From a virus, in the IMG/VR virus record IMGVR_UViG_3300032053_009476, positions 1-27,633 of that record: a stretch of 27,633 nt of DNA. One strand, given 5' to 3'. The notes under the pieces were generated by a model. The model saw nothing but the letters and a program-made list of their open reading frames with translations. It was not told the DNA's origin and did no database searches. Shown here in pieces: positions 146 to 18,534 of this stretch. Positions within the stretch are counted from its first letter, which is position 1. Every line of letters begins with the position of its first letter. The translations under genes were made by a program, and so were the position numbers.

Positions 146-1494
146 GCGGTCTTCTCTCTAGACCTGCTTATACCGCGCCTGGTGATCTCACCGTAGACAA
201 CATCGCGGCCCACCTTCAGCTCCTTACTGACCGCTGAAACCGACAAACCAGTGGAGTAGAGACGCGCGATCTCGTCGCGGACCTCCTGCGGCACACGAAG
301 AAGCCGGCTCTTGGCCTTTCCCCGCAACAGGTTACGTTCAGTGAGAATCTCTTCGACCGTCGTGTTGGAGCGGCCTGATTTCGCGGCCGTCTGCATGACC
401 GTAAGGCCACTGGTGTAGAGAGCAGCGATGCTGTCGCGCTCAGGCTCAGTTGTGGCATTCACATGGGATGGGACGTTTGGTCCTGGCGCTACAGTGTCGC
501 CTGGAACGACGATGGCAAGGATACCTTTGGCATCAAGCGCGGCCTCATCCCACATCTCGAACGGCAGCGTCGGTTGTGTGAGCTTGAACTTCTCGATGGC
601 CTCGCCTGACTTGGGCCGCAACCAACCCTTGACGTCGATAATCTTGGTGAGCGTGTTGGTGCTGTCGTAGAGCCAGAAGTCGGGTGTGTAGACGTGGCCA
701 TCTCCGATGTCGTAGCCGCACTCTTCGTAGTTCCACTTGAGATCCTGCTGGTCTAGCCAGATCGCCGTCTTGATCTCCCACATTGATCGCATGTGGAAAA
801 CGCGGCCATTCTTATCGGACCACTTGAAGCCGGTGGCCTCATCAAATGAGCGGACCTCGACACCGTGGTCACGGAGAACCTTCTTGATCGGATCGGCGGA
901 GCACTCATTGTTCTGGGCGAGTGCTGTTACCGACCACCCGCTCTGATAGAGCCTTACAATCTCGCTCTTCTTGTCAGGCTGATCGGTAAACAGGCCACGA
1001 TTGTGGTTGCCGGCTGAGTTGTTCGTCAACCTACGGCGCTGCAGCTCAGAATAGACAACGGCTCTGGTAGCGAGTGGATTGTTGATGATCGCGACTATCT
1101 GATCACCAGTCTTACCGGTGATATAGAGTGCGGCAATCTGGTCCCGCACCGCTTGCGGCACCCTCGCGAGCTTCTTGGCCGCGTGGCCAAGCAAGATACC
1201 GCGCAGCCTAAGGTGTCTATCAACAGCCTGCTCAGTGCAATCCAGCTGGCCGGCAATCTCCTTGGTCGTCTTACCGACCTGATAAAGCCCGACAGCCGTC
1301 AGTATCTCCGTCTCTGTCAGCTTGTGACCGGATTTACGACGCCGGACAATGAGGCCTCGTCTACTGAGCGCCTTCCAGATTGTTTGCTCAGCGACACCGT
1401 TATCGCGACCTAATTGCGCGATAGAAATCCCGGCGGCGTAGCCGCTAAAGATGACCTCGTATTGGGCCTCTGTGAGCTTAGCCATAAAACGCAT
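142..1494 (-). CDS. HTH-array PD-(D/E)XK nuclease, probable free-standing homing endonuclease
   Basis: The protein has 450 residues. I see six helix-turn-helix-like repeats of about 40-45 residues at roughly 6-50, 59-101, 112-156, 175-214, 350-390 and 401-443. Repeats 3 and 6 are very similar (RVPQxVRDxIAxLYxTG, then VVYxExxRR), which suggests internal duplication. Between repeats 4 and 5 sits a compact domain with E240 (SMWEIK), P271-D272 (YTPDFW) and D287-V-K289 (IIDVKG), a textbook PD-(D/E)XK arrangement. I infer a sequence-specific nuclease whose HTH units read a long site. It follows the tail sheath gene and overlaps the next gene by ATGA. Two starts are possible: the ATG at 1494 lies only 2 nt from an AGGAGG, while the ATG at 1485 (MAKL) has 11 nt spacing and may be the real one. 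It could instead be a regulator with a nuclease fold. Confidence 0.75.
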   Translation of the reverse strand: MRFMAKLTEAQYEVIFSGYAAGISIAQLGRDNGVAEQTIWKALSRRGLIVRRRKSGHKLTETEILTAVGLYQVGKTTKEIAGQLDCTEQAVDRHLRLRGILLGHAAKKLARVPQAVRDQIAALYITGKTGDQIVAIINNPLATRAVVYSELQRRRLTNNSAGNHNRGLFTDQPDKKSEIVRLYQSGWSVTALAQNNECSADPIKKVLRDHGVEVRSFDEATGFKWSDKNGRVFHMRSMWEIKTAIWLDQQDLKWNYEECGYDIGDGHVYTPDFWLYDSTNTLTKIIDVKGWLRPKSGEAIEKFKLTQPTLPFEMWDEAALDAKGILAIVVPGDTVAPGPNVPSHVNATTEPERDSIAALYTSGLTVMQTAAKSGRSNTTVEEILTERNLLRGKAKSRLLRVPQEVRDEIARLYSTGLSVSAVSKELKVGRDVVYGEITRRGISRSREKTA

Positions 1495-1532: not shown

Positions 1533-1584
1533 ATTGTGTCAAGCTGTCAGGTTAGTTATTTTGTCTTTGACTTAACTTTTCGTC

Positions 1585-4506
1585 CTAACCTGTAGCAGTG
1601 CCAGCGGGTTGCGTTAATGTGAATATCACAAACTCAGCCGGCTTCCCCGGGGTGAAGCCGATGTCGATAATGACCTTGCCCTGGTCGATCGATGCCTGGC
1701 TGTTGTTGTTGGCGTTGCACTTGATGAAGTAGGACGTCTCCTGCGTCGACCCACCAAAGTAACCGAGGCGGAACAGCGAGCTGTAGTAGCCCTTGAGCGC
1801 CGCTTCGATCTTCTGCCAGAGGGCGGGTCCGTTGTTCTCGAACACCGTCCACTGGAGCTGCTGCTTCGTCGTGTACATTAGGAAGTTGTTGAGGAGGCGC
1901 GCATTGATGTAGCGCCACCGAACTTCCTTCGCGAGAGACCGCGCGCCGTTGACGATGTAGCCGGTCGCGGCCGATGTCGGGAGCGGGTTGATACGGGCCT
2001 GGTAGAGGTTGTCCTGGTCCGTACGGCTGAGCTTGATTTCCGGACCAACGACTCCGTCTGCGTCCAGCGCGCCGTCCACAATACCGGCTGGCGACTTGCC
2101 AATATTCTTGTTCCGGGCTGTCTTAGCGTAAACGCCAGCTACGAAGCCCGACGCCGGAAGAAGTTCGACGATGTCCGTCGCGTCATTGACGAAATAGACG
2201 TTCGGGAAGTAAATCGCGCAGTTCTTCGAGTCGAAAGCCTGCGTGACCAACACGTATTGAATCGCCTCGCCGACCGTCGTGCCGTTAGCCAATGAGAAGA
2301 TCGCGAACCTGTCCTGCCGTGCATCGCAGAAATCTACGATATCGGCCTGGACGAATGCGCTGCCCTCAAAGTCCGGAACGACGACGTTAAGGGGCTCCTC
2401 GACAAGGTCGAGCGCGTAGATGCCCTTCAGACTCGCCTCAATAGTCGGGTTCGAGATGTCGTTACGCGAGATCACCGTGCCGTCCAGACCACCGGCCAGC
2501 TGGAACTGAATGGCCTGAGCAAGCTTCACATAGGACGCTGTGATCGGAGTAGCCGCCGGAGGCGCAACCGCCCACGTAAAGTCGAGCGAACCTACGTTGT
2601 AGTCGATCGTGTTGACGCCGGCCGCGTTCACGTCGCCTACGATCGCACCAAGGCCGTTGTCGTAGGCATACTGGCCGGTCTGGTAGTAAACATCGATCGT
2701 CGAACCGGTGAGCGGAGCAGCTGTCGTCACAAGGGTGACGAGTCCTGTGTCAGTGTTGACCGTCGACGCTGTAGACGCGTCGCCGAGCAATCCACCTGTA
2801 GTGTTCGAGTAAACGTTTCCGAGCACTACGTAATCAACGTAGAAGAAAGTCCCGGCTGCCGGCGCCACAAGCGTCTTAACGTCGATAGGTCCAGACGTTG
2901 GAATGTTAGCGGTCTGGCTGTTGACTAGGTCAACAGTGTTGATACCGAGCGGGTCGATCGATCCGTTAAGCGGCACACCGACCTCAAGATCATTGAAGTA
3001 GGCGAGTGTGGCTGTGGCTGTTCCCGGTGCAGTAAGATTGACGATCGCGCCAGCGGCGAAGTCCGCGACCGATGTAACCTTGACACGCGCCACGCCGGAC
3101 ACGAGCGACAACAGGGTGCCCGTTGCTGCACCCTGCGTTAGCGCGTCGCCAGCGGCCCACGGACCGACAATCGCCGTCAGCTCAAGGGTCTGAACCCGGA
3201 ACTTCGTAATGATGTTCGACTGGTAGTAGTTCGCGGCCACGTTAGAGAGGGCCGTGAGCGCCGCCGTCGTACCAGTCATCGCTCCGGTGACGTAGTTAAT
3301 CGTGCCGCCAAGAGGGAGCGCACCTTGTGTTCCAGACAGGACACCGGCGCCATCGTCGGTAATCGTCGCGAGTCCGATGCCGTTGACGTTCACAGAGATC
3401 GTCACTGTGCCGGGGTGGACAGGACCGGTGAGAGGTGTCGTTCCGAGGACATAGGTGGCCGGCAGAGCGCCGATCACCGCGAGCGCTGGCGTCGAGACAG
3501 CTGTGAAGGCGTACTTCAACTTGAACGACACGATGTCGCGGTGGAGCGGGTTGTTGACCACACCAGCACTGAAGATGAAGTCCTTGTTGACGCCGTTGAT
3601 CAGACCGGAGCTGGCCGGCAGAACTTCATTCGTGACCAGCAACTTCTGATAGAAGAGTCTGGCTGAGCCCTCAACCACTGAAATGTTGGTGAGTGCAAGA
3701 GTGAAGGCCGTGTTCACGCCGTTGATTGCGCCGGTAGTTGGCGCGGTCGGCAAGTACTTCGTCGTCCCAGACACCGCCTTGATCGCGAGCGTGTTCTCAA
3801 GCACAGGTACGTTCGCGAGCGTTGCCATGAACCGCGATGCAAGGGGTGCCCCGCCGCCAGTTCCAATAGACTCGTTCGTCACGACAGTCGGAAGCATGGC
3901 CGACGGCACGCCACCAACACCGACAATCGTCCTGACCAGAAGGCTAGGCTTGCGCGGGTCAGCGATTACGTTGATGAGATAGTCCGCCTGCGACGGATCA
4001 TCGAACTGGACCTGCTCGTAGGTCTCGACCGCGTCCAAGAACGCCGGGTTGAAGTCGGATGGCGCGAGGATGAGAAGGTCGAACTTATCCCACGAATTCG
4101 TGGTCGGGTTGAGGAAGTTTCGATTGCCACGAATACGAATAGCGAGGTCGTTGCCCCACGTACCCTCACCGTTGGCAATGAACGTCCACTTGGACGGTCC
4201 GGGAACCGCATCGATGGAGACCTGGGCCGCGACCGCATCGGACGGTGCGACACGGGACACCCATGCGCGCTCTCCGCCGGTTCCAAAGAATCCGCGAATC
4301 TGCTGCGGAATGACACCACGGCTGTTTGTCGGACCGAAGACCCGCGTGAAGTCCTCGACCGATCGAACCTGGATGGGGTAGTTTGACGGGCCCTTCTGGG
4401 TCCACCCAACAAACCCAACCTTAGCTGGCGAGAACTGGTCCGGCGCACGCGCGGGAGCCTTCTCGACACCGTAAACGCCTGCTGACTTGAACTCAGTTAT
4501 GGGCAC
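1585..4506 (-). CDS. contractile tail sheath protein
   Basis: This 973-residue protein matches the phage tail sheath family at both ends. The N-terminus has the pattern of a proline-rich start (SAGVYGVEK), FVGWTQKGP and VEDFTRVFGP. The C-terminus (about 830-973) contains RTDQDNLY, VNGARSL, WRYINARLL, TKQQLQWTVFE and a final strand GKVIIDIGFTPGKPAEFVIF, typical of the sheath C-terminal domain that forms the contractile polymer around the tail tube. T4 gp18 is about 659 residues; the excess lies in a Gly/Ala/Thr/Val-rich middle (about 215-680) that repeats an INGVNxxF motif and is probably beta-rich and surface-exposed. The start is GTG with GGAGG six bases upstream. It follows two small structural-type genes in one transcriptional direction. 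Confidence 0.93.
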   Translation of the reverse strand: MPITEFKSAGVYGVEKAPARAPDQFSPAKVGFVGWTQKGPSNYPIQVRSVEDFTRVFGPTNSRGVIPQQIRGFFGTGGERAWVSRVAPSDAVAAQVSIDAVPGPSKWTFIANGEGTWGNDLAIRIRGNRNFLNPTTNSWDKFDLLILAPSDFNPAFLDAVETYEQVQFDDPSQADYLINVIADPRKPSLLVRTIVGVGGVPSAMLPTVVTNESIGTGGGAPLASRFMATLANVPVLENTLAIKAVSGTTKYLPTAPTTGAINGVNTAFTLALTNISVVEGSARLFYQKLLVTNEVLPASSGLINGVNKDFIFSAGVVNNPLHRDIVSFKLKYAFTAVSTPALAVIGALPATYVLGTTPLTGPVHPGTVTISVNVNGIGLATITDDGAGVLSGTQGALPLGGTINYVTGAMTGTTAALTALSNVAANYYQSNIITKFRVQTLELTAIVGPWAAGDALTQGAATGTLLSLVSGVARVKVTSVADFAAGAIVNLTAPGTATATLAYFNDLEVGVPLNGSIDPLGINTVDLVNSQTANIPTSGPIDVKTLVAPAAGTFFYVDYVVLGNVYSNTTGGLLGDASTASTVNTDTGLVTLVTTAAPLTGSTIDVYYQTGQYAYDNGLGAIVGDVNAAGVNTIDYNVGSLDFTWAVAPPAATPITASYVKLAQAIQFQLAGGLDGTVISRNDISNPTIEASLKGIYALDLVEEPLNVVVPDFEGSAFVQADIVDFCDARQDRFAIFSLANGTTVGEAIQYVLVTQAFDSKNCAIYFPNVYFVNDATDIVELLPASGFVAGVYAKTARNKNIGKSPAGIVDGALDADGVVGPEIKLSRTDQDNLYQARINPLPTSAATGYIVNGARSLAKEVRWRYINARLLNNFLMYTTKQQLQWTVFENNGPALWQKIEAALKGYYSSLFRLGYFGGSTQETSYFIKCNANNNSQASIDQGKVIIDIGFTPGKPAEFVIFTLTQPAGTATG

Positions 4507-4524
4507 AGGTCGCCTCCTCGCAGC

Positions 4525-4722
4525 TTATCGGCTGAAGTTCGGAATTTCGCGCGCCGACATTTCACGGATCGCGTTGATCCGGAGGAGGCGAACGATGTGT
4601 GGATTGAGCGGGTTGCCTGAGAAAGTATGCCCAGACGGGTAGCTAACAGCGTTTCCGTCCGGTGTCTCAACCATCACCGCGCTCTTAGCGACTACCTGAA
4701 ACGTCTTGTTACGTGCGTTCAT
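4525..4722 (-). CDS. small hypothetical protein in tail module
   Basis: The 65-residue protein begins MNARNKTFQVVAKSAVMVET and contains a PSGHTF segment and NPHIVRLLRIN. ATG is preceded by GGGAG at 7 nt spacing. It lies 18 nt upstream of the sheath start and 3 nt after the preceding gene, so it is co-transcribed with the tail genes. The first half looks like short beta-strands. I recognise no family; its location suggests a tail or neck accessory role, but this is only inferred from context. Confidence 0.6.
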   Translation of the reverse strand: MNARNKTFQVVAKSAVMVETPDGNAVSYPSGHTFSGNPLNPHIVRLLRINAIREMSAREIPNFSR

Positions 4723-4725
4723 GGA

Positions 4726-5589
4726 TCAGCTCCCGTATACGCCTTCGCGAATGATAGGCTGGCCAGTACCATAGAGTCCGCCAGGTCCCGGATTGGGATC
4801 AGCGACCCCGCCGCCGGCCAGAGGAATACCGTTGGCATCAGCGGGGACTAGCCCATACCCGCCAGGGCCGGGAACAAGTTGGTAACCGCCAGGGCCACTC
4901 GAAACGCCAGGCAGTGGTGTCTTGGTTCTTGAGCCGGTGAAGGCCGGAGCCGAGAACGGCGTTCTGTCGAGGGTAAGCTCAGCCTCAGCCTTGATCGAGA
5001 GCGCGTAGCCCGGGATCCGGTCAACCATGGAGCTTACGTCGGTGAGGTCATTAACGCCTTGCTGAAACAACGCGTAGGTGCGCGGATTCCCGATACTATC
5101 GGTGAGTGTCACGGCGCCTCTGTGCGGGAAGGCGCGCATGACCATCGCGAGGAGCATCTGGGAGACAGTCCTGTAGCGAGACCAGCACTCGAACGTATAA
5201 AACAGATCGTAAGGCTGCTCCTTGTCCTTGGTCTCGTAATTGGTGAAGCCGACCTCACCATTGGCTGAGACGGCGTGCGCGCCCTCTGCTGGAAGACGGT
5301 ACTGCTGGACCGGGGAGAGAAGACGGTTCTCAGCAGGAACGATCGAATCTCGAATAACAGCGATCATCGGCAGAATAGCCGTGATCTGCGTAGGCTCCGG
5401 ACGCTTGTAAACAACCAACGCGCGGTCAACCGGCTGCTCGCGGCCTTCGACCTTGATGAAGATCCCGTTGAGAGGCAGATAGAATTGGTTCTTGCCCGCG
5501 TCTTCGAGTGCGCCGAAGCCACGGATCATCGCGTCGTCCCAGTCGAGGAGATCGACGCTTCCAGTTCTATAGCCAAAATCGAGCGCCAT
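4726..5589 (-). CDS. putative tail-completion or sheath-associated structural protein
   Basis: The 287-residue protein begins MALDFGYRTGSVDLLDWDDA. Residues 1-210 look like a mixed alpha/beta domain with YDLFYTFECWSRYRTVSQML followed by MRAFPHRGAVTL, the latter reminiscent of tail terminator or sheath-stabiliser proteins that handle multi-subunit rings. The last 80 residues are Gly/Pro-rich with repeated GPGGY units (VSSGPGGYQLVPGPGGYGLV), probably a flexible tail. It sits directly upstream of the small protein and the tail sheath, where T4-like genomes keep neck and tail-completion genes. The family assignment is weak and rests mainly on position. A hairpin lies just before its start. Confidence 0.45.
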   Translation of the reverse strand: MALDFGYRTGSVDLLDWDDAMIRGFGALEDAGKNQFYLPLNGIFIKVEGREQPVDRALVVYKRPEPTQITAILPMIAVIRDSIVPAENRLLSPVQQYRLPAEGAHAVSANGEVGFTNYETKDKEQPYDLFYTFECWSRYRTVSQMLLAMVMRAFPHRGAVTLTDSIGNPRTYALFQQGVNDLTDVSSMVDRIPGYALSIKAEAELTLDRTPFSAPAFTGSRTKTPLPGVSSGPGGYQLVPGPGGYGLVPADANGIPLAGGGVADPNPGPGGLYGTGQPIIREGVYGS

Positions 5590-5593
5590 GCTT

Positions 5594-5616
5594 GGGCGGT
5601 GACTCCATCACTGCCC
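5594..5616 (-). promoter_or_regulatory. hairpin immediately upstream of the tail-completion candidate
   Basis: GGGCGGTGA (5594-5602) pairs with TCACTGCCC (5608-5616) around a 5-nt loop, giving 9 bp with one G-T wobble. On the minus strand the loop reads TGGAG, an SD-like sequence, and the stem ends four bases before the ATG at 5589. It may present or limit the ribosome site. Because it also lies on the left side of tnpB, it might instead be part of an insertion-sequence end. Confidence 0.4.
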
Positions 5617-5734
5617 ACATACTAACTCGCATCATGAGGATCAGTCGATAGTAAGACTGCGATTAGTCCAGTAGACTCAAAGGGATGCGCACTAACCGTT
5701 GACCGCTGCCACTCCTAGTGCGTATGATCCAGAG

Positions 5735-6856
5735 ATGCAGCGTGTAGTGACTCTTACGCTTGAGGATGACCCTGACCTTCGATCGACCATCGAGTCGTTT
5801 AGAATCATCCAACAGGCTGTTTCAGAAATCGCTGCCAAATTAGTTAATGCTTCGTCTGCGATTGCCCTCCATCGCAAGAGTTACTCAAGGGTTCGTGGTC
5901 CACTGAAGGCGCAGTTGACGTGCACCGCAATTCGCTCAGTCGCGGCTGCCTATGGTCAACGAGGCGATAGCAAGATCAAGGACCCGATCCAGTTCAATAA
6001 GCCCAGGGCGATGTTCCTAATCGGGAAGGCTAAGCGCGACGCAAGCATCAACAAAGACGGGACAGTTACAGTGTGGACGATCGGTGGCCGTAAACGACTT
6101 AAGTTTACTGTGCCGCAGCAGTTCAAGTCCGCAATGGCTCAGGCTGAGTCGTTCGATGCGCTGTGCGTAGCTATCAGCCGTGGTAGGCTCCACGCAACGC
6201 TCTCAGTCACGCTACCCGATCCTGAGTGCGTAGGCGCGCTCCCCGTCGGCGTGAACCTAAACGATGTGAATGCTATCGCGGCCATTGACATGAATGGCCG
6301 GTCAATGTGTGTAACAGGCGTCGCTCACCGGGCAATGATGAAGTCTGGAGAGAAAACCAGGAGGAGACTAGAGGACCGCCTCTCGACCCGAAAGGCAGAG
6401 GGCCGCGAAACACGTTCGGTTCGCCGGCTCCTCAAACGGCTAGGTCGGAAGCGCTACCTTCAAACGAAGACGTTCTGCAGCACGGCAGCTAAGTCCCTGG
6501 TTGACTGGGTTGGTCCGAGAGCGGTGATCGTACTTGAGGACTTCCGCCACCAGTCACCATCAAGGCGAAAGCTGCCGACTGTTGTCGGTCCTGTGTTCTA
6601 CGAGAACATCCGACACAGGATCGAGTCGCGGGCCGCCGCGTCGGGGATCGCCGTAGCTTACGTTGATCCGCTGAGCAACCTACCCTGCTCACGTTGCGGC
6701 AGTGAGGGTTCGCATCGTCGCGGCCAGTTCACATGTCCGCATTGTGCGTTTCAAGCACCCGTGGATAAGAACGCGGCCACCAACGTGAGGAACAAGTATA
6801 CGGTCTTTAAGGCCGTGGGCTGTAGCCAGCCTGCCCCGAAGCTCGACATCGGGTAA
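5735..6856 (+). CDS. tnpB: TnpB-family RNA-guided protein with an altered RuvC-I catalytic residue
   Basis: This 373-residue protein has the normal TnpB length. Numbering from the ATG at 5735, it has an N-terminal helical region, the RuvC-II strand VIVLEDF (E268), a zinc ribbon with C318/C321 and C334/C337, and RuvC-III DKNAATN (D344). The RuvC-I strand reads GVNLNDVNAI, where TnpB proteins have GVDL or GIDL, so the first catalytic Asp appears to be Asn174 (codon AAC). This predicts a guide-RNA binding protein with weak or no cleavage activity, unless D177 or D185 substitutes. It is on the strand opposite its structural-gene neighbours. No tnpA is nearby. A TTG at 5699 would add 12 residues; neither start has a clear SD. 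The surroundings suggest a solitary or immobilised element. Confidence 0.88.
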   Translation: MQRVVTLTLEDDPDLRSTIESFRIIQQAVSEIAAKLVNASSAIALHRKSYSRVRGPLKAQLTCTAIRSVAAAYGQRGDSKIKDPIQFNKPRAMFLIGKAKRDASINKDGTVTVWTIGGRKRLKFTVPQQFKSAMAQAESFDALCVAISRGRLHATLSVTLPDPECVGALPVGVNLNDVNAIAAIDMNGRSMCVTGVAHRAMMKSGEKTRRRLEDRLSTRKAEGRETRSVRRLLKRLGRKRYLQTKTFCSTAAKSLVDWVGPRAVIVLEDFRHQSPSRRKLPTVVGPVFYENIRHRIESRAAASGIAVAYVDPLSNLPCSRCGSEGSHRRGQFTCPHCAFQAPVDKNAATNVRNKYTVFKAVGCSQPAPKLDIG

Positions 6857-6885
6857 ATCCAAGGCGTAAGCTCTGGATAGCTGGC
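6825..6885 (+). ncRNA. candidate omega-RNA (reRNA) scaffold overlapping the tnpB 3' end
   Basis: The last tnpB codons and the 29 bases after its stop can fold as a three-way junction: outer stem GCCAGC (6825-6830) with GCTGGC (6880-6885); hairpin CCCGA (6835-6839) with TCGGG (6849-6853); hairpin ATCCA (6857-6861) with TGGAT (6874-6878), topped by GGC-GTAA-GCT, a GNRA tetraloop. TnpB guide RNAs are known to overlap the gene's 3' end and to run into flanking DNA, so the guide would begin near 6886. The stems are short and were found by eye; the 5' end of such an RNA cannot be placed. Confidence 0.35.
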
Positions 6886-6894
6886 GAAAAACTA

Positions 6895-7626
6895 CTACTG
6901 AGCGCCGTGTTTGATGTCTGCAGCGGTCCTCGAGTCGTGCTTTGTCTCTGGTGGCCGACCGTCGCCGTTCAGTTGATTGTCGAATGCCTTTGTGACGGCC
7001 GCTCCATCCGTCATCGACTGAACGTGTCCTGCTACCGTGGCCCAGATCGGCGTCCTCGGGAAGCCACCAAGTCCGAATTCCAGCCGTCGAGTTAGGAAAT
7101 CGATGTCAGCCATGACGCTGCCGTTGATCGTCGGTAGACCGCTGGCGCTGACCTTCTTGCCGACGCGGGTAAGGATTGCCATGATCGAGGAATGCTCGCT
7201 CTGAAGCCTTTTTCGGTGAAAGTCGACTTCTGATTCACTCGCTGGACGTACTAGAACGTCTGACGCGATTCCGCCGACCACGCACGGAAGGGCGTCGATC
7301 GCCCATGGATTGTATTGCCCCAAGATCTGAGCACCCTCGTCGCCACCTTGGAACCAAAGCAGCGACTTATCGGCCTCTACTTGATCGAACGAGAGCTGTG
7401 CGATGCCTGCGATGCCCCACTCAGTTGGACTGATCTCGATGAAATCGACGGCGTGCCTATAGACGTCGAACCAGCCACCCTCTTGCGGAATCATGGATCT
7501 GATTTTGGCCGCCAATTCTGCGGCCAATACAGCTCCAGCTGACTCAGCAGCCTCGCCGACCTTCTGGGGCAACCCATCGATCGCCTTTTGAACAGCTGCG
7601 TGGTTACTCTTGATCGAGAACTGCAT
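6895..7626 (-). CDS. putative neck or head-tail connector protein
   Basis: The 243-residue protein begins MQFSIKSNHAAVQKAIDGLP. The first 55 residues are an amphipathic helical stretch (VGEAAESAGAVLAAELAAKI) followed by a short strand region, loosely like HK97 gp10-type neck proteins. The rest has no motif I recognise; the C-terminus is polar and probably disordered. Its ATG lies five bases after the portal stop, so it is co-expressed with the portal, which fits a virion assembly role. The tnpB gene lies convergently only 38 bp beyond its stop. Function is inferred from context only. Confidence 0.5.
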   Translation of the reverse strand: MQFSIKSNHAAVQKAIDGLPQKVGEAAESAGAVLAAELAAKIRSMIPQEGGWFDVYRHAVDFIEISPTEWGIAGIAQLSFDQVEADKSLLWFQGGDEGAQILGQYNPWAIDALPCVVGGIASDVLVRPASESEVDFHRKRLQSEHSSIMAILTRVGKKVSASGLPTINGSVMADIDFLTRRLEFGLGGFPRTPIWATVAGHVQSMTDGAAVTKAFDNQLNGDGRPPETKHDSRTAADIKHGAQ

Positions 7627-7631
7627 CGTAG

Positions 7632-10600
7632 TTATTTCTTGTGCCCACGACCGCGCGGGGCCGCGACAACAGACCCGTTGCCATTCCTTGCGAACGCCGT
7701 GTGCCGGAACTCTTGCAGGAAGGCGTTCGTCTGGTTGAGGCGTGACGCGAAAGCACGGTCGGTCGATACAACCTTAACCAACGTGTCCATGATCTCGTCA
7801 TGGCGCTTCTCAGAGAGCTTTTCTTTCTTCTCCTCTAGACGGCGTGCATTGTCGAAGCTCTTCCACTCGCCGGCAGTATTGGGCCGACCAGCGGTGCCAG
7901 GAGGCGGCCCAATGTCTGGGCTGCCAGGAGGCGGAGCCGCTGCGCCTGGCGCTCCAGTCAGAGCGCCAGAGGTGTCCGGCATCTGCAGTGGACCGGATGC
8001 CGCGCCGCCCGGAGCGCCGCCCTGCTGCTGCTGCTGTTGAGCCGCTTGCTCTTCTTGCTCCTTCTTGATTTCCTTCTCCAGGATGTCGATCTCCTCATCA
8101 CTCATCTTGAAAACGACTTTCTGGATATAGCGCTTGGAGACGAAGGGCTGAATGCGGCCGGCAAAGTCGGCGCGAGCGTTCTTGACCTCCATGTGAGCAA
8201 GCTCGTAGATACCAGACGGAACCGTCATCATCACTTGAAGGTCATGCTTGAACGGGTCGATGCCACGGGCCGCGAGGTCGATCTGGACGAGTCGGCGGAT
8301 GCTGTTCCGCACTTCGCGCTGAACGCCCATTGTTACGCGCGCGGCCCTGACGTCCTCATTCGACAGAATCGATTTACCAGGGACTGCGTCGTCCTGGCCA
8401 AGATAACTGCGCGGTACTTTCAGAACGCCGTGAAGCTTCCTGGCAAAGTAGTCGACGTCGTCCGTTGCCTGGTAATCGGGACCCTGAAGGACTTCAACTC
8501 GTGCGAGTTCGCGGCCCTCACGGACAGCGATGAAGAAGTCCTCAGAGTTATCCATCGGATTGAATCTCATATCAAGCCGCTGGGTTCTTGGGTTTACCAT
8601 CTTCTGTTTACGTAGGTCTTGCTTTGCTTTTCTTAGGAAGGATTCAACCTTATCGCCAGGAATATCGGTAACGTCGATATAAAATGCGAAGCGGGCCGGA
8701 GCGCGTGTATTGTGAACCGGGACACCGTTAGCGATGAAGTTATGCTCATCCGCCTCAACGCCAATGTCCCAGATGTCGTCGTTCGAGACCTCTTCGACGG
8801 ACGTGATAGGCTCGCTAAGAGGTGCCTGCTTGAAGTAGAAATCAAGTGTATAGCTTGTAGTCGGAGGCATGCGTCGACCGGTCTTCTGGTCTACGACGTG
8901 ACCACCAGCCCGATTCCTCTCACGGACGAGGCAAACAATAAGGCCAAGCTGCATGGCCAGTTCACGAACGTCCTCAAGCAGTGCCTTGTTACACAACTCG
9001 ATAGAGATCCGACCGCCCTTAGGCCGACGATGCCCATCAGCGTCGACGAGACCTTCGAGCAGCGCGAGCTTGATCGACGGATGTGCCTTGTAGATCCAAT
9101 CGGGCAGCCGCTTTTCTGCCGCTCCAGGAATGAAGCCGTTCAGCTTCATAAACTCTGCGAACGCGCTGGAATAGACAGCGTAGGAGCCTAGCCGTCCACC
9201 GTTGTCGGCAACAAGTTTTAGATTGGTTCCAGCGTACCTCTCAAACAGCGTTCGGTAGCGCGAGTTCATCTCCTGATCATCGCCAAGAGCGAAGCCGACC
9301 TCGTTACACGCCTCGTAGCCATCCTTGTGATGACGCGTTGTAATGAAGCCATCGCCGAGCATAAATCCGAACCAACGGGAAAAGTCTGCATCTACCACAT
9401 CTGGAACGTTGATTCCGTAGACCGGTGTTCCGGTGCGACCGCTCCAGCTCTCCTTAATGTCGAGGTGCTCAGATCCGTAGCCGTTAGCCTCAAGAAGAGC
9501 AACGGCGGTGTCAGCTACCAGGTCGTAGTTACCGGCAAAGAAGTCCTCAGTCCGATACGCGTGGACGCCTAGCTTCTTAGCGATATCCGGCAGAGGCATC
9601 TTCCTGGTCAGCCCGGTGGCGACCGATGATTGCTTGATTCGAGCCTTGCGGACCAACTCCGGCTTGACCAGGTGAACGGGCTCCCAGTCCTCGGCATTCT
9701 TCTTGGGCAGGAACAGACTGTGCTTACCGGGAACTAGACTCTTGACCTCGACATAGTCGGCGTGACGAACCTTCGCTCTACCACTGCCGAAGTGCTCAGT
9801 CCACTCCACGAGCACGGGGTGCGTCGCGTTCGCAAACAGTTCGCGATGCTTACTGCGGATCTTGAAGATCCGATCTTGCCCGTTGTGCTTCTTGTAGACG
9901 ACCTTTGTCTTCTTGAGTTTGTCTTCTGTGGTGTACGAGTAAACCTCGTCGCCCTCATTGAGGTCCTTGATGGCCTTGCGACCATCAGGTGTCCAGATCT
10001 GCGAGTCTCCGCGCAGGCAGAGCTTATAGATGAGCATTGCATCTTCGAGAAGAACGAGGCGCTTCCAGATCCAGCGAGCGCCGTCACTAATGCTCACACC
10101 GTAAGGAGACCGACGAGTCGTACCACGGAGCCGCGTGTGAAGGACTTGCCACTCCTCGAAGAGCGCAACGTGATCCGGGATCTTTGTCTGCCCAGCAAGC
10201 ATGCCGCGAAGGTCGGCCGCGTCTTGAGTGAACTTACCTGTGATGTCTTGGACGTAGCCAATCAGAGAGCCATTAGCCTGCTCGACACGACGCATCGTCG
10301 GAACGGGGAGCGCATTGAGGCCGATTACGCCGTTCTCGGTGACTAGGACCTCCTCGTAGTCGTTTCCGTACTTGACGGTCGTGTAGACGATGCTCCAGAT
10401 CTCGTCCTCGATCTTGAGCCGCTTATGGAGCAGTGTTTCCGCAAGCTCCTTTAGCGCGTGGTCATTCGAGTGGACCCAAATCGTTCGACCGGTGTCGATG
10501 TCAGGCTGCGTCGCGTCGTTCGTGAAGTAGTGGTTGGCGCTATTATGAACCACAACGCCGTTAGCGACGAAGTTGTGCGTCTTCGTCGTGACATCGTAAA

Positions 10601-11231
10601 CGTCAGTCACTCCTGCGTCAGACGGATTCTCCACCACGGTGACGTAGTGGGCCGCCGGATAAGAAAAGATGCTGAGTTGAGACGTGCTGAAACCGGCCCA
10701 CGAAGAGACGATCTTGTCGTCCTTCTTAAGCAGTTCGGCGTTCACGTAGCCAGTGCCGTGCTTGAGGAACTTATGGTCCTTCGTGCACTTGATCGTCTCG
10801 CCGTTGCTCAGCTTGATAGCAATGACCGGAATGTTATTGGCCGTGAGTCTGGGGTTTTCGCCTTGCACGAGGACGAGCTTGGAGGTCTCCAGGTCGTAAG
10901 CAAGGATCTGGTAGCCGCCGCCCTCAGCGGCCAGATCATGAATTGCGGCCGGTTTAATCACTGAGCCTTCAGCGATATAGACCTTCGTATCACCTGCTAG
11001 ACAGTTAATGTCGGGGTACTCATCCATCTGTTCGCAGTCGGCGAACTTATCCATCAAGTTCTGAGAGACGGTGAGCAGGCCGCCGACGTCTTCGCGTCCC
11101 CAAACACTGAAAATCGAAGACGGTAGGTTTCGTTCAGCTTCAGCTGAGGGAGACTCCGCCCTCTCGCGTTCGGCGCGTTCGCGGCCGAACACTTGGCGTA
11201 GGAACGTAATAGCGTCGTCTCTTAGACCCAC
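7632..11231 (-). CDS. portal protein precursor containing two inteins
   Basis: The precursor has 1199 residues. Exteins are 1-76, 231-404 and 842-1199, giving a spliced portal of about 608 residues. The C-extein has the T4 gp20 signature RAPARFAFYIDVTDIPGDK followed by ...EDFFIAVREGRE and DDVDYFARKLHGVLKVPRSYL. The portal is the dodecameric vertex through which DNA is packaged. Its C-terminus adds a coiled coil, a six-Gln run and a Pro/Gly-rich linker, then a helical tail. Intein 1 joins N76 to S231; intein 2 joins L404 to T842, exactly before the conserved RAP motif. Both junctions have Cys1, terminal His-Asn and Ser or Thr at +1, so both should splice. The start is GTG with GAGG upstream. 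Confidence 0.92.
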   Translation of the reverse strand: MGLRDDAITFLRQVFGRERAERERAESPSAEAERNLPSSIFSVWGREDVGGLLTVSQNLMDKFADCEQMDEYPDINCLAGDTKVYIAEGSVIKPAAIHDLAAEGGGYQILAYDLETSKLVLVQGENPRLTANNIPVIAIKLSNGETIKCTKDHKFLKHGTGYVNAELLKKDDKIVSSWAGFSTSQLSIFSYPAAHYVTVVENPSDAGVTDVYDVTTKTHNFVANGVVVHNSANHYFTNDATQPDIDTGRTIWVHSNDHALKELAETLLHKRLKIEDEIWSIVYTTVKYGNDYEEVLVTENGVIGLNALPVPTMRRVEQANGSLIGYVQDITGKFTQDAADLRGMLAGQTKIPDHVALFEEWQVLHTRLRGTTRRSPYGVSISDGARWIWKRLVLLEDAMLIYKLCLRGDSQIWTPDGRKAIKDLNEGDEVYSYTTEDKLKKTKVVYKKHNGQDRIFKIRSKHRELFANATHPVLVEWTEHFGSGRAKVRHADYVEVKSLVPGKHSLFLPKKNAEDWEPVHLVKPELVRKARIKQSSVATGLTRKMPLPDIAKKLGVHAYRTEDFFAGNYDLVADTAVALLEANGYGSEHLDIKESWSGRTGTPVYGINVPDVVDADFSRWFGFMLGDGFITTRHHKDGYEACNEVGFALGDDQEMNSRYRTLFERYAGTNLKLVADNGGRLGSYAVYSSAFAEFMKLNGFIPGAAEKRLPDWIYKAHPSIKLALLEGLVDADGHRRPKGGRISIELCNKALLEDVRELAMQLGLIVCLVRERNRAGGHVVDQKTGRRMPPTTSYTLDFYFKQAPLSEPITSVEEVSNDDIWDIGVEADEHNFIANGVPVHNTRAPARFAFYIDVTDIPGDKVESFLRKAKQDLRKQKMVNPRTQRLDMRFNPMDNSEDFFIAVREGRELARVEVLQGPDYQATDDVDYFARKLHGVLKVPRSYLGQDDAVPGKSILSNEDVRAARVTMGVQREVRNSIRRLVQIDLAARGIDPFKHDLQVMMTVPSGIYELAHMEVKNARADFAGRIQPFVSKRYIQKVVFKMSDEEIDILEKEIKKEQEEQAAQQQQQQGGAPGGAASGPLQMPDTSGALTGAPGAAAPPPGSPDIGPPPGTAGRPNTAGEWKSFDNARRLEEKKEKLSEKRHDEIMDTLVKVVSTDRAFASRLNQTNAFLQEFRHTAFARNGNGSVVAAPRGRGHKK
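8709..10019 (-). mobile_element. intein 2 in the portal, with LAGLIDADG homing endonuclease
   Basis: Residues 405-841 form a 437-residue full intein. Block A is CLRGDSQIW; block B is FANATHPVL, with Asn in the place usual for Thr; blocks F and G are WDIGVEADEHNFIANG and VPVHN, followed by Thr+1. Between them are two LAGLIDADG-type helices, FGFMLGDGFI (about intein residue 217) and LLEGLVDADG (about 320), both keeping the acidic residue, so the homing endonuclease is predicted to be active. The site, immediately before the conserved RAP motif of the portal, is typical of homing into highly conserved coding sequence. Confidence 0.92.
10542..11003 (-). mobile_element. mini-intein 1 in the portal (no endonuclease)
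   Basis: Residues 77-230 of the precursor form a 154-residue Hint domain. Visible blocks are A (CLAGDTKVY), B (TKDH within ETIKCTKDHKFL), F (VYDVTTKTHNFVANG) and G (VVVHN), followed by Ser+1. There is no LAGLIDADG or HNH insertion, so it can splice but cannot home by itself. It interrupts the N-terminal part of the portal at PDIN/SANHYF. Mini-inteins usually derive from larger ones that lost the nuclease. Confidence 0.9.
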
Positions 11232-11279
11232 ATTAACCTCAGTCCGGCTTCGGTAATCTAGACCTATAGTCTACCAACT

Positions 11280-11993
11280 TCATATCTTAAGGAAAACGCC
11301 GGAAACAGCAACCGTATCTGCGGTATCTATTGTCGCCGTGAAGACGTCCTCTAAGTGGCCCACTTCCACTGAGAGCACCCGGTGATTGGGCTTAAGGATG
11401 ATACTCGCAGAGCTGGAGCCCAGCTGGTCGTATTCATCGAACAGCGCTTGAGCGTCCTCGACCGCCTGTATAATGCCATAAGACCTAGACTTAGATGCCT
11501 TGGCGATGTTCTGCGTAATCTGCAAGTTATCGGGGTGGTAGTTCTTTCGGTTTTTGTCAATGTGCTCGACGAACGTACCGGGTGGTAGTTTCTGACCAGT
11601 CTTCCACTCAGCCACAAGTCTTGAGAATTTATAAGGTTGTGTCGTTCCTGGCTCTTTATAGGTCGGGTAACCGTGGGCGTCTTCGCTGGTGTAGAGCGGT
11701 AGAAGGCTATCGCCGTCAACGAGTTCAGGTGGCAACTTCGTGGTGCGGTTAAGCATCACAAAGCTTGAACTGGCGGACACATACAGCCTGTCACCGCTAT
11801 CTAGTTCGACTATAAAGATCTGCTCTTGCCCTATTGCCCTGAAGTCTAAAGCCTTGGCTACGTAGAACCGCGTTCCGGTCCAAACGAAGACTGAAACTGA
11901 GAGGCCTTGGCTAGTCTCGCAACGTCGGGCAAGTTCAGAAACAGAGACCGGACCAGAGGTCGTCTCGATCCTCATGTCACCGCGAAGACCCAT
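11280..11993 (-). CDS. free-standing intein-derived HNH endonuclease, splicing residues lost
   Basis: This 237-residue protein is laid out like an intein with an HNH insert, but it is a complete gene of its own with ATG and GAGG upstream. The start MGLRGDMRIETTSG corresponds to intein block A (CLRGD) with Gly in place of Cys1. Block B (LYVSASSSF) has Ser where the His belongs. The C-terminus (VEVGHLEDVFTATIDT, then VAVSGVFLKI) corresponds to blocks F and G, with Lys-Ile instead of His-Asn. Between them, about 130-160, is VEHIDKNRKNYHPDNL, an HNH motif. All autocatalytic splicing residues are absent, so I infer a former intein now working as a DNA endonuclease or binder. It lies directly upstream of the double-intein portal gene. 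Confidence 0.75.
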   Translation of the reverse strand: MGLRGDMRIETTSGPVSVSELARRCETSQGLSVSVFVWTGTRFYVAKALDFRAIGQEQIFIVELDSGDRLYVSASSSFVMLNRTTKLPPELVDGDSLLPLYTSEDAHGYPTYKEPGTTQPYKFSRLVAEWKTGQKLPPGTFVEHIDKNRKNYHPDNLQITQNIAKASKSRSYGIIQAVEDAQALFDEYDQLGSSSASIILKPNHRVLSVEVGHLEDVFTATIDTADTVAVSGVFLKI

Positions 11994-12008
11994 ACACCCC
12001 TCAACCTA

Positions 12009-13268
12009 CTATCGATCGGCAAGCAGGATTGGGCTAGCCGCCGCTTGCTCAAGAACTGTAGGAATAAAAGTCTCTGTTCCGAGAGCATCGATCACGGAGA
12101 ATCCATCTCGGGACGCCACGGCGCGCAACGGCGTTGTGCCCTTAAACCGCGCAGCCTTGCCTCTCTTCAGATAGGCGACTGTCATGTGCGGGATATAGTC
12201 GTCGTGCGTTTGACTACGAGTATGCGGCAGCTTCATAAGCGCGCGCCGGAGCCCCAGCAGGCCCTCACTCACGATCTCGATATAAAGCACGTCGTGATCA
12301 GGCGCGTCGAAGAAGTTCATGGCGCCTAGCGAGACCCTAATTGGTCGCCCATAATCGGCGCCGGCTTCGGCTATGAGCTGTTGGTCCTGTCGATCTAGAC
12401 CGTAGACCAAGGTGACGTGTGGCCGCCGTTCGACTCGCTCGATCATCGACTCAGCGAGATTATCGGCGACCCATTTACTGAGCGGCCCGGCCACACTCGG
12501 TAGGTCAATCTGGGACTGCAGGAAGTTCTCGTCGCTCTGCTCCAACAACGAGTCCTCAAAGATCTCACGGTTCCTGAACGGTGCGACCAAGCTCAGAAGA
12601 ACCTTCTTCATGGTTGAACCAGATCGCTGCATCCTGAGTCCAATCCGGCCGCGACCTAGGATTGTATCGGCCATGACTTCCGCAAAAGACTCAGCCGGAT
12701 CAGCGTTCGAGTAGTCGGTCGGAAACTCGTTAGAGACACGCTTGGTCTGGAGCCAAGCCTTGAACGCCTCAAGGTCTGGTCCAAAGTGCTTCTTGAAGAA
12801 AAACCATAAGTTGTGTCTGTCCGGGTGCTTAGAGACAAGCCGTGTGATTGCATCGGCAGCACTGGGCGGGATCGGTTTCCCCATGCTGTTTGCGATGACG
12901 GTCCAAACCTCTTTGGCATCCTTAGAGAGGAGCTTGTACCAAACGCGATGCGCAAGCTCGTGGACAATAGTCCACAACCAATCGGGCGCCCCTCTTACCT
13001 GAGGGTAGAAGATCTTCGACTCGTCGCTCTCTGGTGCGTAGCGACCATTGGCGCGCTCTCCGGGTTCACGATGGACAACTTTAATCGCTCCGCCAAAGTC
13101 TCTGTCGCGGAGGCCGAAAGCTCTTAACTTCTCGACCGCGATATAGCTTGCATCGAGAAAATCGCCGATGCCCTCAGCCGGAACATCGTAATTTGCAGAG
13201 ATGCGGAGCGGGCCGAGCTTATGCTGCTTGGGCGACAGCAGGCGAAACGCGGCCAACACACGCTTCAC
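12009..13268 (-). CDS. fusion of predicted zinc metallopeptidase and 2H phosphoesterase
   Basis: The 419-residue protein has two recognisable parts. Residues 90-205 include H103-E-L-A-H107 (TIVHELAH) and a later acidic stretch, PAESFAEVMAD (E193, E197), the pattern of gluzincin-like metallopeptidases. Residues 280-375 have two H-x-T motifs, H284-V-T286 and H361-M-T363, about 77 residues apart, diagnostic of 2H (LigT-like) phosphoesterases that act on cyclic or 2',3'/2',5' phosphodiesters. Phage anti-CBASS Acb1 belongs to this superfamily, but I cannot assign a substrate. It sits upstream of the portal region, so it may be a virion or assembly protein. A methionine at 220 might allow separate expression of the second half. 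Start overlaps the preceding gene by ATGA. Confidence 0.7.
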   Translation of the reverse strand: MKRVLAAFRLLSPKQHKLGPLRISANYDVPAEGIGDFLDASYIAVEKLRAFGLRDRDFGGAIKVVHREPGERANGRYAPESDESKIFYPQVRGAPDWLWTIVHELAHRVWYKLLSKDAKEVWTVIANSMGKPIPPSAADAITRLVSKHPDRHNLWFFFKKHFGPDLEAFKAWLQTKRVSNEFPTDYSNADPAESFAEVMADTILGRGRIGLRMQRSGSTMKKVLLSLVAPFRNREIFEDSLLEQSDENFLQSQIDLPSVAGPLSKWVADNLAESMIERVERRPHVTLVYGLDRQDQQLIAEAGADYGRPIRVSLGAMNFFDAPDHDVLYIEIVSEGLLGLRRALMKLPHTRSQTHDDYIPHMTVAYLKRGKAARFKGTTPLRAVASRDGFSVIDALGTETFIPTVLEQAAASPILLADR

Positions 13269-13564
13269 TCGGACACTTCCTCACTACTAGGCGATTGTTT
13301 GGACTCAATGTAGCCATCGTATTTAGAAGAGTGCATCACCAGGACCTTGCGCACGATGTCGTGAGGGTAAGCGGCATGCTTCCCGTCTTCCAGCAGAAGA
13401 TAGACGCGCTCAGAGTCGAAGCTGGCTCCGTAGATAGAATGCATCACGCTCTTTCGACCTAGGTCGACAAACTCAACTTCAACGTTCCATGGAGCTGGCC
13501 CGTCCGAAGTCCTATCCTCGTCAGGCTCAGAGGGCTCTGGCTTCGGGGGCTGGCGCTTAGTCAT
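13265..13564 (-). CDS. hypothetical protein with acidic, proline-rich N-terminus
   Basis: The 99-residue protein starts MTKRQPPKPEPSEPDEDRTS, a probably disordered segment, followed by a small beta-rich domain (about 27-85) with VEVEFVDLGRKSVMHSIYG and VYLLLEDGKHAAYPHDIVRKV. Its stop overlaps the start of the metallopeptidase/2H gene by ATGA, implying coupling. No family recognised. It belongs to the virion-side operon by position. Confidence 0.6.
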   Translation of the reverse strand: MTKRQPPKPEPSEPDEDRTSDGPAPWNVEVEFVDLGRKSVMHSIYGASFDSERVYLLLEDGKHAAYPHDIVRKVLVMHSSKYDGYIESKQSPSSEEVSE

Positions 13565-13578
13565 TGGTGCTAACGCTC

Positions 13579-13767
13579 CTAGGGAAGTGTTTCGGTTAGC
13601 AGGCGTGGTCCGCCTGGCTTGCTCTCTTTGAGTGCTTGCTGGAAGCGCTTAGCCTCGCTTTCACCGACCTCGATCTGTTGCTTCGACCCATCGTCGTTCT
13701 GCATCGTGACGAAATACTTCTCGCCATCCGCACGGAAGGACTTGTCGACTGACACTACACGAGCCAT
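13579..13767 (-). CDS. small hypothetical protein
   Basis: The 62-residue protein begins MARVVSVDKSFRADGEKYFV and looks like a three-stranded sheet followed by a helix (GESEAKRFQQALKESK). A good SD, GAGG at 5 nt spacing, precedes the ATG. It is the first gene of the leftward block; a plus-strand gene starts only 26 bp away, so promoters or ribosome sites for the two are intermingled. No function assigned. Confidence 0.6.
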   Translation of the reverse strand: MARVVSVDKSFRADGEKYFVTMQNDDGSKQQIEVGESEAKRFQQALKESKPGGPRLLTETLP

Positions 13768-13793
13768 TCTGTCCTCACACTGGTTGGTAAACC

Positions 13794-14714
13794 ATGGACT
13801 ATCGTAACAGCCAACACCCCAACATCCATAGTAGTTTCACCTCTTCGACGGGCAGCAATGCCGGATGGCAGGTATACGTAGACATGAGCCAGAACACGTC
13901 TAATCCGAATTTCACCTACCTAACCGATGCTGGTCCGAGGACGGTTAGCGTAAGCACGCTGCAGCCGACCGCCGTTTACGCCTACATCTGCCACTGTGGC
14001 TGTGAGCAAGTATTCACAGCCTCTGGCGATGAGATCGTCAAGAAGCCGATTATCAGCGGTCGCGTTCCACTGCCTAGCACTACCTATACGGTAAACGCCG
14101 CACCGTCCGCAGTGCCGCCGACCGTTCCTACTGCTCCAGTAGCGGCGTCAACTAACGCGGCGGCTGCCTGCGAAGTGCGGCTGTCGGTCTCGTTGATCTC
14201 TCCGCCTACGGTGCGATCCGAGGCAATGGCCGCCGACAGCGGAGCCAATGTCGCTCTTACCACAAAAGGAGGCGGGTCAATGGAGTTTGACGACATGGTC
14301 ACGGGGTTCGAAGAGACTGAGGAAGACACGACGCCGATCCCGGCGCTCAAATCAGTCGATGCATCCACCAAGATCGAACCTACCCGTGAACCTAAGATCG
14401 GCGACATCGTCTGGTCAAAGGCGACTGGAAGAGGGCCACTCACGATCATCGCCGGGACAACCATCAATGTCCGCGCTCCGAAGCTTGAGATCGACACACC
14501 GGACGGCACCTACACTCGCGAGCGCACCAAGTCCGACGAGGTGCTTCGGTTGGATGCCTGGCTGGTGAGAGACGACAGCGGTCGGCTTACGACATTCGCT
14601 AAGCCTGAGCTAACGCTCGTGCACCAACCGGCTCGATTCAGTCTCCTCAAGATTGTGATGTGGGTCTCGACTTTTGCGTCATTTATTGCGGCTGGTTGGC
14701 TCCTGCATCGTTAG
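13794..14714 (+). CDS. tail-anchored membrane protein of unknown function
   Basis: The 306-residue protein runs opposite to both neighbours. Residues 64-70 contain a Cys/His cluster (ICHCGCE). Residues about 100-150 are Ala/Pro/Thr-rich and low complexity, then an acidic stretch (FEETEEDTTPIPAL). Near residue 200 a small domain starts with EPKIGDIVWSKATGRGPLTI. A single hydrophobic segment at the very C-terminus (about 283-303: LLKIVMWVSTFASFIAAGWL) is followed by His-Arg, the layout of a tail-anchored protein. The ATG lacks a clear SD. The last 32 bp overlap convergently with the zinc-finger gene. The strand switch and composition suggest a separately acquired gene, perhaps acting at the host membrane; that is inference. 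Confidence 0.6.
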   Translation: MDYRNSQHPNIHSSFTSSTGSNAGWQVYVDMSQNTSNPNFTYLTDAGPRTVSVSTLQPTAVYAYICHCGCEQVFTASGDEIVKKPIISGRVPLPSTTYTVNAAPSAVPPTVPTAPVAASTNAAAACEVRLSVSLISPPTVRSEAMAADSGANVALTTKGGGSMEFDDMVTGFEETEEDTTPIPALKSVDASTKIEPTREPKIGDIVWSKATGRGPLTIIAGTTINVRAPKLEIDTPDGTYTRERTKSDEVLRLDAWLVRDDSGRLTTFAKPELTLVHQPARFSLLKIVMWVSTFASFIAAGWLLHR

Positions 14715-15072
14715 CCTTTCGCCAACCTTTATTGTAGTGTCGCGCGCACAAGGCTTTCGCACGGACATGGGCCGTGCAGCCCGGCTCTGCGCAGCTCTTC
14801 TGACCTAGTAGGTACTCGCGGTCCGGCGTCAACTGACCGTAGAGTCGTATCTGTCGAGCGTGTTTACGGCAGTAGCCGTGGATCGCAGTCGCGAGCTTGC
14901 ATGCCGGCGCTGAGCACGGTGTTGGGCCTCTGTGCTCGCGCTGCGGCGTCAGTTGACCGTGCCGCAGGATCTGCATGTAGTGTCTCTTGCAGTGCCCGGT
15001 CGCATATGTTTTGCGGCCACAATCGGGCGCGGTGCATACTGAGGTTACTTGTTGCTTAGGCTTCTTAGCCAT
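14683..15072 (-). CDS. three-finger zinc-binding protein related to HNH endonuclease DNA-binding region
   Basis: The 129-residue protein is almost entirely three repeats of about 40 residues with the ligand pattern CX4CX9CX2H: C13/C18/C28/H31, C53/C58/C68/H71, C94/C99/C109/H112. The first two repeats end in near-identical linkers, GQLTPQRE and GQLTPDRE. The HNH endonuclease at 22.2-23.0 kb carries the same 40-residue finger layout at its N-terminus (CX4CX10CX2H). I infer a DNA-binding zinc array, either a remnant of an HNH endonuclease that lost its catalytic domain or a repurposed regulator. It starts right after a small hairpin and overlaps the gene before it. Confidence 0.7.
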   Translation of the reverse strand: MAKKPKQQVTSVCTAPDCGRKTYATGHCKRHYMQILRHGQLTPQREHRGPTPCSAPACKLATAIHGYCRKHARQIRLYGQLTPDREYLLGQKSCAEPGCTAHVRAKALCARHYNKGWRKANDAGANQPQ

Positions 15073-15090
15073 TGATCGAACTCTCGATCA
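15073..15090 (-). promoter_or_regulatory. hairpin abutting the zinc-finger gene start
   Basis: TGATCGA (15073-15079) and TCGATCA (15084-15090) form a perfect 7-bp stem with a 4-nt loop. On the minus strand the stem ends at the base before the ATG, and the purine-rich SD-like CGAGAG lies in the upstream arm and loop. It may tune translation. The stop codon of the previous gene lies within it. Confidence 0.4.
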
Positions 15091-15489: not shown

Positions 15490-15490
15490 C

Positions 15491-15817: not shown

Positions 15818-15924
15818 GATTCGCCTCCTATTTCTTTTAGACTACGCGGATAACCCGTTCTACCCGATGCTGACGACCTCTGCGTAGTAAATCCTTGTGC
15901 AGTCGCACACGATGACGCATCGCG
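15818..15924 (-). other. HU leader region with a 7-bp long-range stem
   Basis: This 107-bp gap between HU and the upstream small gene contains ACTACGC (15841-15847) and GCGTAGT (15882-15888), a perfect 7-bp pair enclosing 34 nt. On the minus strand the structure ends about 17 nt before the HU AGGAGG. It could be a 5' UTR structure. There is no following T-run, so it is not a convincing terminator. No gene or tRNA is seen here. Confidence 0.35.
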
Positions 15925-18425: not shown

Positions 18426-18476
18426 TTCCCGCCGCTCTTCCTACGTAGTTCTACCTGAAGACCGATCCTCAAAAGC

Positions 18477-18509: not shown

Positions 18510-18534
18510 TGCGAGCTGGTTGGAACTCCTGAGA

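What the first reader, a model, noticed from the sequence alone, without database searches (positions are those of the whole stretch)
5735..6856. Phage TnpB with RuvC-I Asp replaced by Asn, a candidate natural nuclease-dead RNA-guided binder
RuvC-II Glu, RuvC-III Asp and the zinc ribbon are intact, but the RuvC-I strand reads GVNLN where the family has GVDLN or GIDLG. One G-to-A change would account for it. Exapted TnpB-like repressors with dead RuvC domains (TldR) are known, some in prophages. Here it lies inside a virion gene block, without tnpA, where it could act as a guide-directed repressor.
Basis: partly seen in the sequence, partly recalled or inferred. Interest (0 to 1): 0.8.

Follow-up and report, generated by a model that had tools for sequence, protein, structure and literature searches.

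The report
Phage TnpB protein with dead nuclease
A phage carries a relative of the RNA-guided DNA cutter TnpB whose cutting site has lost a key residue in every copy found, while the rest of the protein and its probable guide RNA stay under strong selection, so it is probably an RNA-guided DNA binder that no longer cuts.

Summary
Window 5735-6856 (+) encodes a 373-aa TnpB-family protein, and residue 174 sits exactly in the RuvC-I catalytic Asp column (Asp in 38/38 relatives). It is Asn here and in a second contig, and Ser in a third contig from a phage about 90% identical. Its closest intact relatives, two TnpBs in another phage (about 40% identical), read GIDLN, so Asp is ancestral, D177 aligns with Glu, and D185 aligns with a separate Asp. 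The pair also lost a stretch after RuvC-II and the TS-x-x-C motif before the zinc ribbon. Glu268, Asp344 and four zinc cysteines remain. Despite this the gene is under strong purifying selection (dN/dS 0.07; 13 amino-acid changes against about 45 expected without selection). Its 3' end plus downstream spacer, where TnpB guide RNAs lie, is the best-conserved stretch of the locus and folds. No tnpA was found. Most likely it is a nuclease-dead, RNA-guided DNA binder that works like TldR repressors. No convincing target was found and no activity is shown, so membership in TldR is not claimed. Novelty: new variant of a known kind.

The parts
5735..6856 (+). tnpB-like CDS, 373 aa, RuvC-I Asp replaced by Asn
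   Evidence: dN 0.0156, dS 0.230 against L003
6254..6256 (+). codon 174 AAC (Asn) at the RuvC-I catalytic position; AGC (Ser) in L003; Asp in 38/38 relatives
6536..6538 (+). codon 268, RuvC-II Glu, intact
6545..6592 (+). segment after RuvC-II (lid region by analogy with Cas12): 5 residues shorter than L077 copies; the conserved Trp (36/38) is lost
6671..6679 (+). remnant of the conserved TS-x-x-C motif before the zinc ribbon (SN here, GN in L003; Ser at the second position in 38/38 relatives)
6686..6745 (+). four-Cys zinc ribbon, intact
6764..6766 (+). codon 344, RuvC-III Asp, intact
6758..6928 (+). best-conserved stretch between window and L003: 1 difference in 171 nt (position 6873, where the L003 base would turn an A.C mismatch into A-U), against 10.2% divergence over 6.7 kb
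6797..6892 (+). candidate omegaRNA scaffold: hairpin, then outer stem GCCAGC (6825-6830)/GCUGGC (6880-6885) enclosing two hairpins, then a GAAAAAC tail
   Evidence: analogy with L077 copies
6893..6912 (+). inferred guide segment, start uncertain by several nt; overlaps the 3' end of the opposite-strand gene 6895-7626
   Evidence: inference from the L077 scaffold/guide boundary
5699..5728 (+). promoter-like TTGACC-18-TATGAT just upstream of the ATG; hexamers kept in L003 while the spacer differs
   Evidence: 0.5 such sites expected by chance
6895..7626 (-). flanking phage gene, 243 aa, no family match; its 3' end overlaps the inferred guide
4726..5589 (-). flanking phage gene, 287 aa, no family match

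Best explanation
The gene encodes a TnpB-family RNA-guided protein whose RuvC nuclease was inactivated in the common ancestor of two phage lineages and which was then kept as an RNA-guided DNA binder. Steps shown by sequence: loss of the RuvC-I Asp (now Asn or Ser); loss of neighbouring nuclease-region motifs; strong purifying selection on the protein; strong conservation of the 3' end and spacer, which folds like a TnpB guide-RNA scaffold. Steps inferred: the RNA from about 6797 to 6912 binds the protein; the segment from about 6893 is the guide; the complex binds matching DNA next to a TAM without cutting it; and it blocks transcription or another DNA process there, as TldR and Cas12m do.
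For: Position 174 is Asp in 38/38 relatives, Asn/Asn/Ser in the three contigs. The two nearest relatives are intact TnpBs with GIDLN, and the four form one 100/100 clade inside Asp-bearing TnpBs, with a longer branch to the Asn/Ser pair (1.39 against 0.61). Both members share the other losses (shortened post-RuvC-II segment, Trp, TS motif), so inactivation probably predates their split. tnpB dN/dS is 0.07; 13 amino-acid changes against a mean of 45 (minimum 31) in neutral simulation, 80% of which gain a stop. A 171-nt block with one difference has simulated P = 0.0002 if differences were scattered at random; no synonymous change in the last 31 codons against 50 in the first 342, P = 0.009. The block folds better than shuffles, z -2.65. 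The AlphaFold model (pLDDT 73.9, pTM 0.50) matches TnpB, Cas12f, Cas12k and Cas12m structures over the whole length. Precedents: TldR (PMC13418256) and Cas12m, including an N-D-D ortholog that binds but does not cut DNA (PMC11013384).
Against: No DNA target was identified; matches elsewhere in the window or in the related phage are about what chance gives. The guide boundary is inferred, not measured. No Rfam match. AmaTnpB needs its RuvC site to process its own guide RNA (PMC10278001), so host RNases would be needed here. The general TnpB model score is low (58 bits against a cut-off of 100), so RNA binding itself could have changed. Selection was measured on a single pair of lineages.
Confidence: 0.6

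Rival explanations
1. A decaying homing-type element: a former RNA-guided cutter that spread through these phages lost its nuclease after fixation and is on its way out, with no present function.
For: The phage is rich in other mobile genes (portal inteins, HNH proteins). Broken remnants of the same subfamily lie in Acidobacteriota genomes. Intact relatives sit in another phage's virion block with two different candidate guides.
Against: dN/dS 0.07 with no stops or frameshifts at dS 0.23, although the shared losses place inactivation before the split. The candidate guide RNA is the best-conserved stretch of the locus.
Confidence: 0.15
2. Still a nuclease through a rearranged active site (for example D177 helping) or with a changed substrate.
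For: Glu268 and Asp344 are kept. Some TnpB clades with rearranged RuvC-II still cut (PMC10278001). D177 is acidic in both lineages.
Against: Intact relatives also carry an acidic residue at the 177 position together with the Asp at 174, so it is not a replacement. Asn and Ser alternate at 174. The post-RuvC-II segment and the TS motif are lost as well.
Confidence: 0.12
3. The product acts on RNA only: the protein protects or processes an antisense RNA that overlaps the 3' end of the 243-aa virion gene and tunes its expression, without DNA targeting.
For: The gene and its 3' RNA run antisense to the 243-aa gene, and the conserved block extends about 30 nt into that gene.
Against: All TnpB guide RNAs run into flanking sequence, so overlap is expected. 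The conserved N-terminal columns (10 of 10 in L003, 9 of 10 in the window) are those of the recognition/wedge region, which argues for the usual RNA-DNA role.
Confidence: 0.12

Closest known systems
L077 TnpBs (IMGVR_UViG_3300031449_000004, two copies)
   Same: Same subfamily (41% and 37% identity, 100/100 clade), in a phage virion gene block on the opposite strand, foldable 3' scaffold, no Y1 tnpA in the record.
   Different: Intact DED triad, TS motif and post-RuvC-II segment; passes the NCBIfam guided_TnpB cut-off (137.9 bits against 100); the two copies have different candidate guides.
TldR (TnpB-like nuclease-dead repressors; PMC13418256, citing Wiegand et al. 2024)
   Same: TnpB descent, inactivated RuvC, retained guide-RNA region, phage location, no transposase found.
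   Different: Single triad residue changed here; no flagellin, csrA or other partner gene; no target found; placement against published TldR clades not tested.
Cas12m (type V-M)
   Same: Non-canonical RuvC triads including Asn at the first position (NED, N-D-D); DNA binding without cutting (PMC10442227, PMC11013384).
   Different: About 600 aa with CRISPR array; here 373 aa and no repeat array.
ISDra2 TnpB (8exa, 8h1j)
   Same: Fold over the whole length, zinc ribbon, RuvC-II Glu, RuvC-III Asp.
   Different: Active DED nuclease.

Membership tests
TnpB family (homology) | Wedge/recognition domain, RuvC and TNB zinc ribbon in TnpB order | tested here: met
   Pfam Cas12f1-like_TNB 37.9 bits against cut-off 26.3; fold match to TnpB and Cas12f; alignment
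TnpB family (curated models) | Score over NCBIfam guided_TnpB and Pfam OrfB_IS605 cut-offs | tested here: not met
   58.3 against 100; 17.9 against 30.5; intact relative P0002 passes the former
Active TnpB nuclease | DED catalytic triad | tested here: not met
   N-E-D in the window, S-E-D in L003
Active TnpB nuclease | RNA-guided DNA cleavage | not testable with these tools
   needs an assay
TldR | TnpB-derived protein with inactivated RuvC | tested here: met
   by sequence only
TldR | Guide RNA retained next to the gene | tested here: inconclusive
   conserved, foldable 3' block; expression and boundary unknown; no Rfam match
TldR | Guide matches a DNA target beside a TAM | tested here: inconclusive
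   no match beyond chance in the window or the related phage; an 18-nt guide core finds only the same phages in viral contigs; host unknown
TldR | RNA-guided DNA binding and repression | not testable with these tools
   needs an assay
TldR | Phylogenetic place within published TldR clades | not tested
   published TldR sequences were not in hand; nearest relatives found are intact TnpBs
Cas12m / CRISPR type V | Associated CRISPR array | tested here: not met
   no direct-repeat family of 20 nt or more with copies within 200 nt in the window
IS200/IS605 element | Y1 transposase tnpA | tested here: not met
   no PF01797 match in three phage records, controls positive

The most novel reading that the evidence does not exclude
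The dead TnpB is a phage-borne silencer of competing phages. As in any TnpB element, its guide equals the flank of the insertion site, here the end of the 243-aa virion gene. A related phage without the element would offer an uninterrupted TAM-plus-target in the middle of its late operon, so binding would block transcription into its tail genes, while the carrier is spared because the element separates TAM and target.
Probability: 0.12. Interest if true: 0.85.

Novelty: new variant of a known kind. Interest (0 to 1): 0.56.

Why it matters
It would be a further, probably independent case of TnpB turning from cutter to binder, caught with an intact sister lineage in phages and with two different residues at the dead site, in a virion gene block rather than next to a flagellin gene. 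The small set (Asn, Ser and Asp relatives with their guide RNAs) makes the order of steps in such exaptation directly testable.

Tried and rejected
Sequencing error: rejected, three contigs. D177 or D185 as the displaced catalytic Asp: rejected by alignment with L077. Guide-target search in the window and the related phage: only chance-level hits; the best is a 12/12 match at 1361-1372 (+) to 6895-6906, with roughly 0.06 such matches expected (my estimate: one 12-mer in about 55 kb, times about 18 start positions), and it lies where L003 has no matching gene. Empty-site relatives by the flanking 243-aa protein: only the same phages found. More relatives in genome contigs by peptide or by a GVxLNDVNA DNA pattern: none are TnpB. 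Searches of Actinomycetota, Acidobacteriota, Pseudomonadota, Planctomycetota and one further phylum gave distant TnpBs and two broken remnants of the subfamily. The first structure model from four sequences was poor. Relaxed change at ex-nuclease sites: positions 174, 313 and 314 are 3 of the 13 differences, but I picked those motifs after seeing them, so I give no P value.

Full report
What was checked. The window ORF 5735-6856 (+) is open and reads as described, with GVNLN at residues 172-176. Pfam finds the Cas12f1-like TNB domain above cut-off, while the OrfB and guided_TnpB models score below theirs. IMG/VR holds two further copies: L080/L002, with identical tnpB in a contig with 10 differences from the window over 7,395 bp, and L003, 97% identical in protein from a phage whose virion region is about 90% identical. 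Residue 174 is Asn, Asn and Ser (AAC, AAC, AGC). A single read error cannot explain this.

Is 174 the catalytic position? A first alignment with eight distant TnpBs put it in the RuvC-I Asp column. A DNA pattern built on WT-GGRKR then found L077, a 20-kb phage contig with two TnpBs of the same subfamily, 41% and 37% identical over their length. They align without gaps across the motif: PVGVNLNDVNAIAAIDMNGR against PVGIDLNETNALVAVDADGR. N174 is their Asp, D177 their Glu, D185 their second Asp. In an alignment with 38 relatives the column is Asp in 38 of 38.

The loss is not confined to one residue. Of 37 columns conserved in at least 85% of the 38 relatives, both lineages keep Glu268, Asp344, the four zinc cysteines and Asn350; of the 10 conserved columns in the N-terminal part, L003 keeps all and the window all but one. 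Both depart at 174, at Leu270 and Lys299 (38/38 in relatives, replaced by Phe and Arg), at Trp287 (36/38) and at the TS pair before the zinc ribbon. Against L077 they are also five residues shorter just after RuvC-II, where Cas12 enzymes carry the lid (the lid comparison is from general knowledge of Cas12). Because both lineages share these losses, inactivation probably came before they split. In the tree the pair and the L077 copies form a 100/100 clade among Asp-bearing TnpBs, and the branch to the pair is the longer one (1.39 against 0.61).

Is it decaying? No sign of it. Between window and L003 tnpB has dN 0.0156 and dS 0.230, ratio 0.07, beside 0.02 and 0.04 for the flanking genes. Placing the same 68 substitutions at random gives 45 amino-acid changes on average, never fewer than 31, and a stop in 80% of trials; 13 and none are seen.

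The guide RNA. In TnpB elements the guide RNA overlaps the 3' end of the gene. Here 6758-6872 is the longest identical run in 6.7 kb of comparison, and 6758-6928 has one difference (simulated P 0.003 and 0.0002 under random scatter). The last 31 codons carry no synonymous change against 50 in the first 342 (P 0.009). The one difference, at 6873, would turn an A.C mismatch inside a predicted helix into A-U. The region folds into a hairpin and an outer stem enclosing two hairpins (z -2.65). In L077 the two scaffolds are alike up to CTTTAGC and then differ, which marks the guide start six nt after the outer stem. By analogy the guide here starts near 6892-6893, at the end of the opposite-strand 243-aa gene. 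This boundary is inference.

Target. No match beyond chance was found in the window or the related phage; an 18-nt core of the inferred guide occurs in viral contigs only in the same phages. The host is unknown. The target is therefore open.

Context. The gene lies opposite to a virion block with portal and tail sheath; the two flanking genes have no family match. L077's copies also lie in a virion block (major head protein); the genes beside them were not identified. No Y1 transposase was found in the three records, with positive controls. A promoter-like site lies just upstream of the ATG, its hexamers kept in L003 although the spacer changed.

Reading. A nuclease-dead, RNA-guided DNA binder is the best-supported account (0.6). 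TldR proteins show that inactivated TnpBs can be transcription factors, some of them phage-borne (PMC13418256), and Cas12m shows that Asn at this position goes with binding without cutting (N-D-D ortholog, PMC11013384; NED triads listed in PMC10442227). One caution is that AmaTnpB needs RuvC to process its own guide RNA (PMC10278001), so host RNases would be needed here. It works like a TldR by inference; it is not filed as one, because target, binding and clade placement are untested.

Structure. The second AlphaFold model (pLDDT 73.9, pTM 0.50) places residue 174 on a strand (169-175) and matches Cas12f, TnpB, Cas12k and Cas12m chains. Active-site distances were not measured.

Noticed in passing
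window 7632-11231 (-); L003 6898-11010 (-): The portal gene carries inteins (intein N- and C-terminal models match). By reading the translations, L003 has inteins at two sites (VNPR|TQRL and GKSIL|SNED) that are empty in the window, so intein content differs between two phages about 90% identical there.
   Followed up: partly
L068 and L072: Broken remnants of the same TnpB subfamily in two Acidobacteriota genomes (frameshift, stops), which hints at past spread in that phylum and perhaps at the host group.
   Followed up: partly
window 11280-11993 (-): Free-standing 237-aa protein with HNH motif; its ends look intein-like by eye, next to the portal gene.
   Followed up: no
window 19496-21154 and 24756-25970 (-): CobT-like VWA protein and MoxR/CbbQ-type AAA ATPase in the same phage.
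   Followed up: no
window 1575-16047 against 16565-27561: Identity to the L003 contig is about 90-92% in the virion half but mostly 72-85% in the other half, suggesting mosaic exchange.
   Followed up: no
L005 1477-2784: A Deinococcus plasmid TnpB lies beside SAVED-domain and TniQ genes.
   Followed up: no
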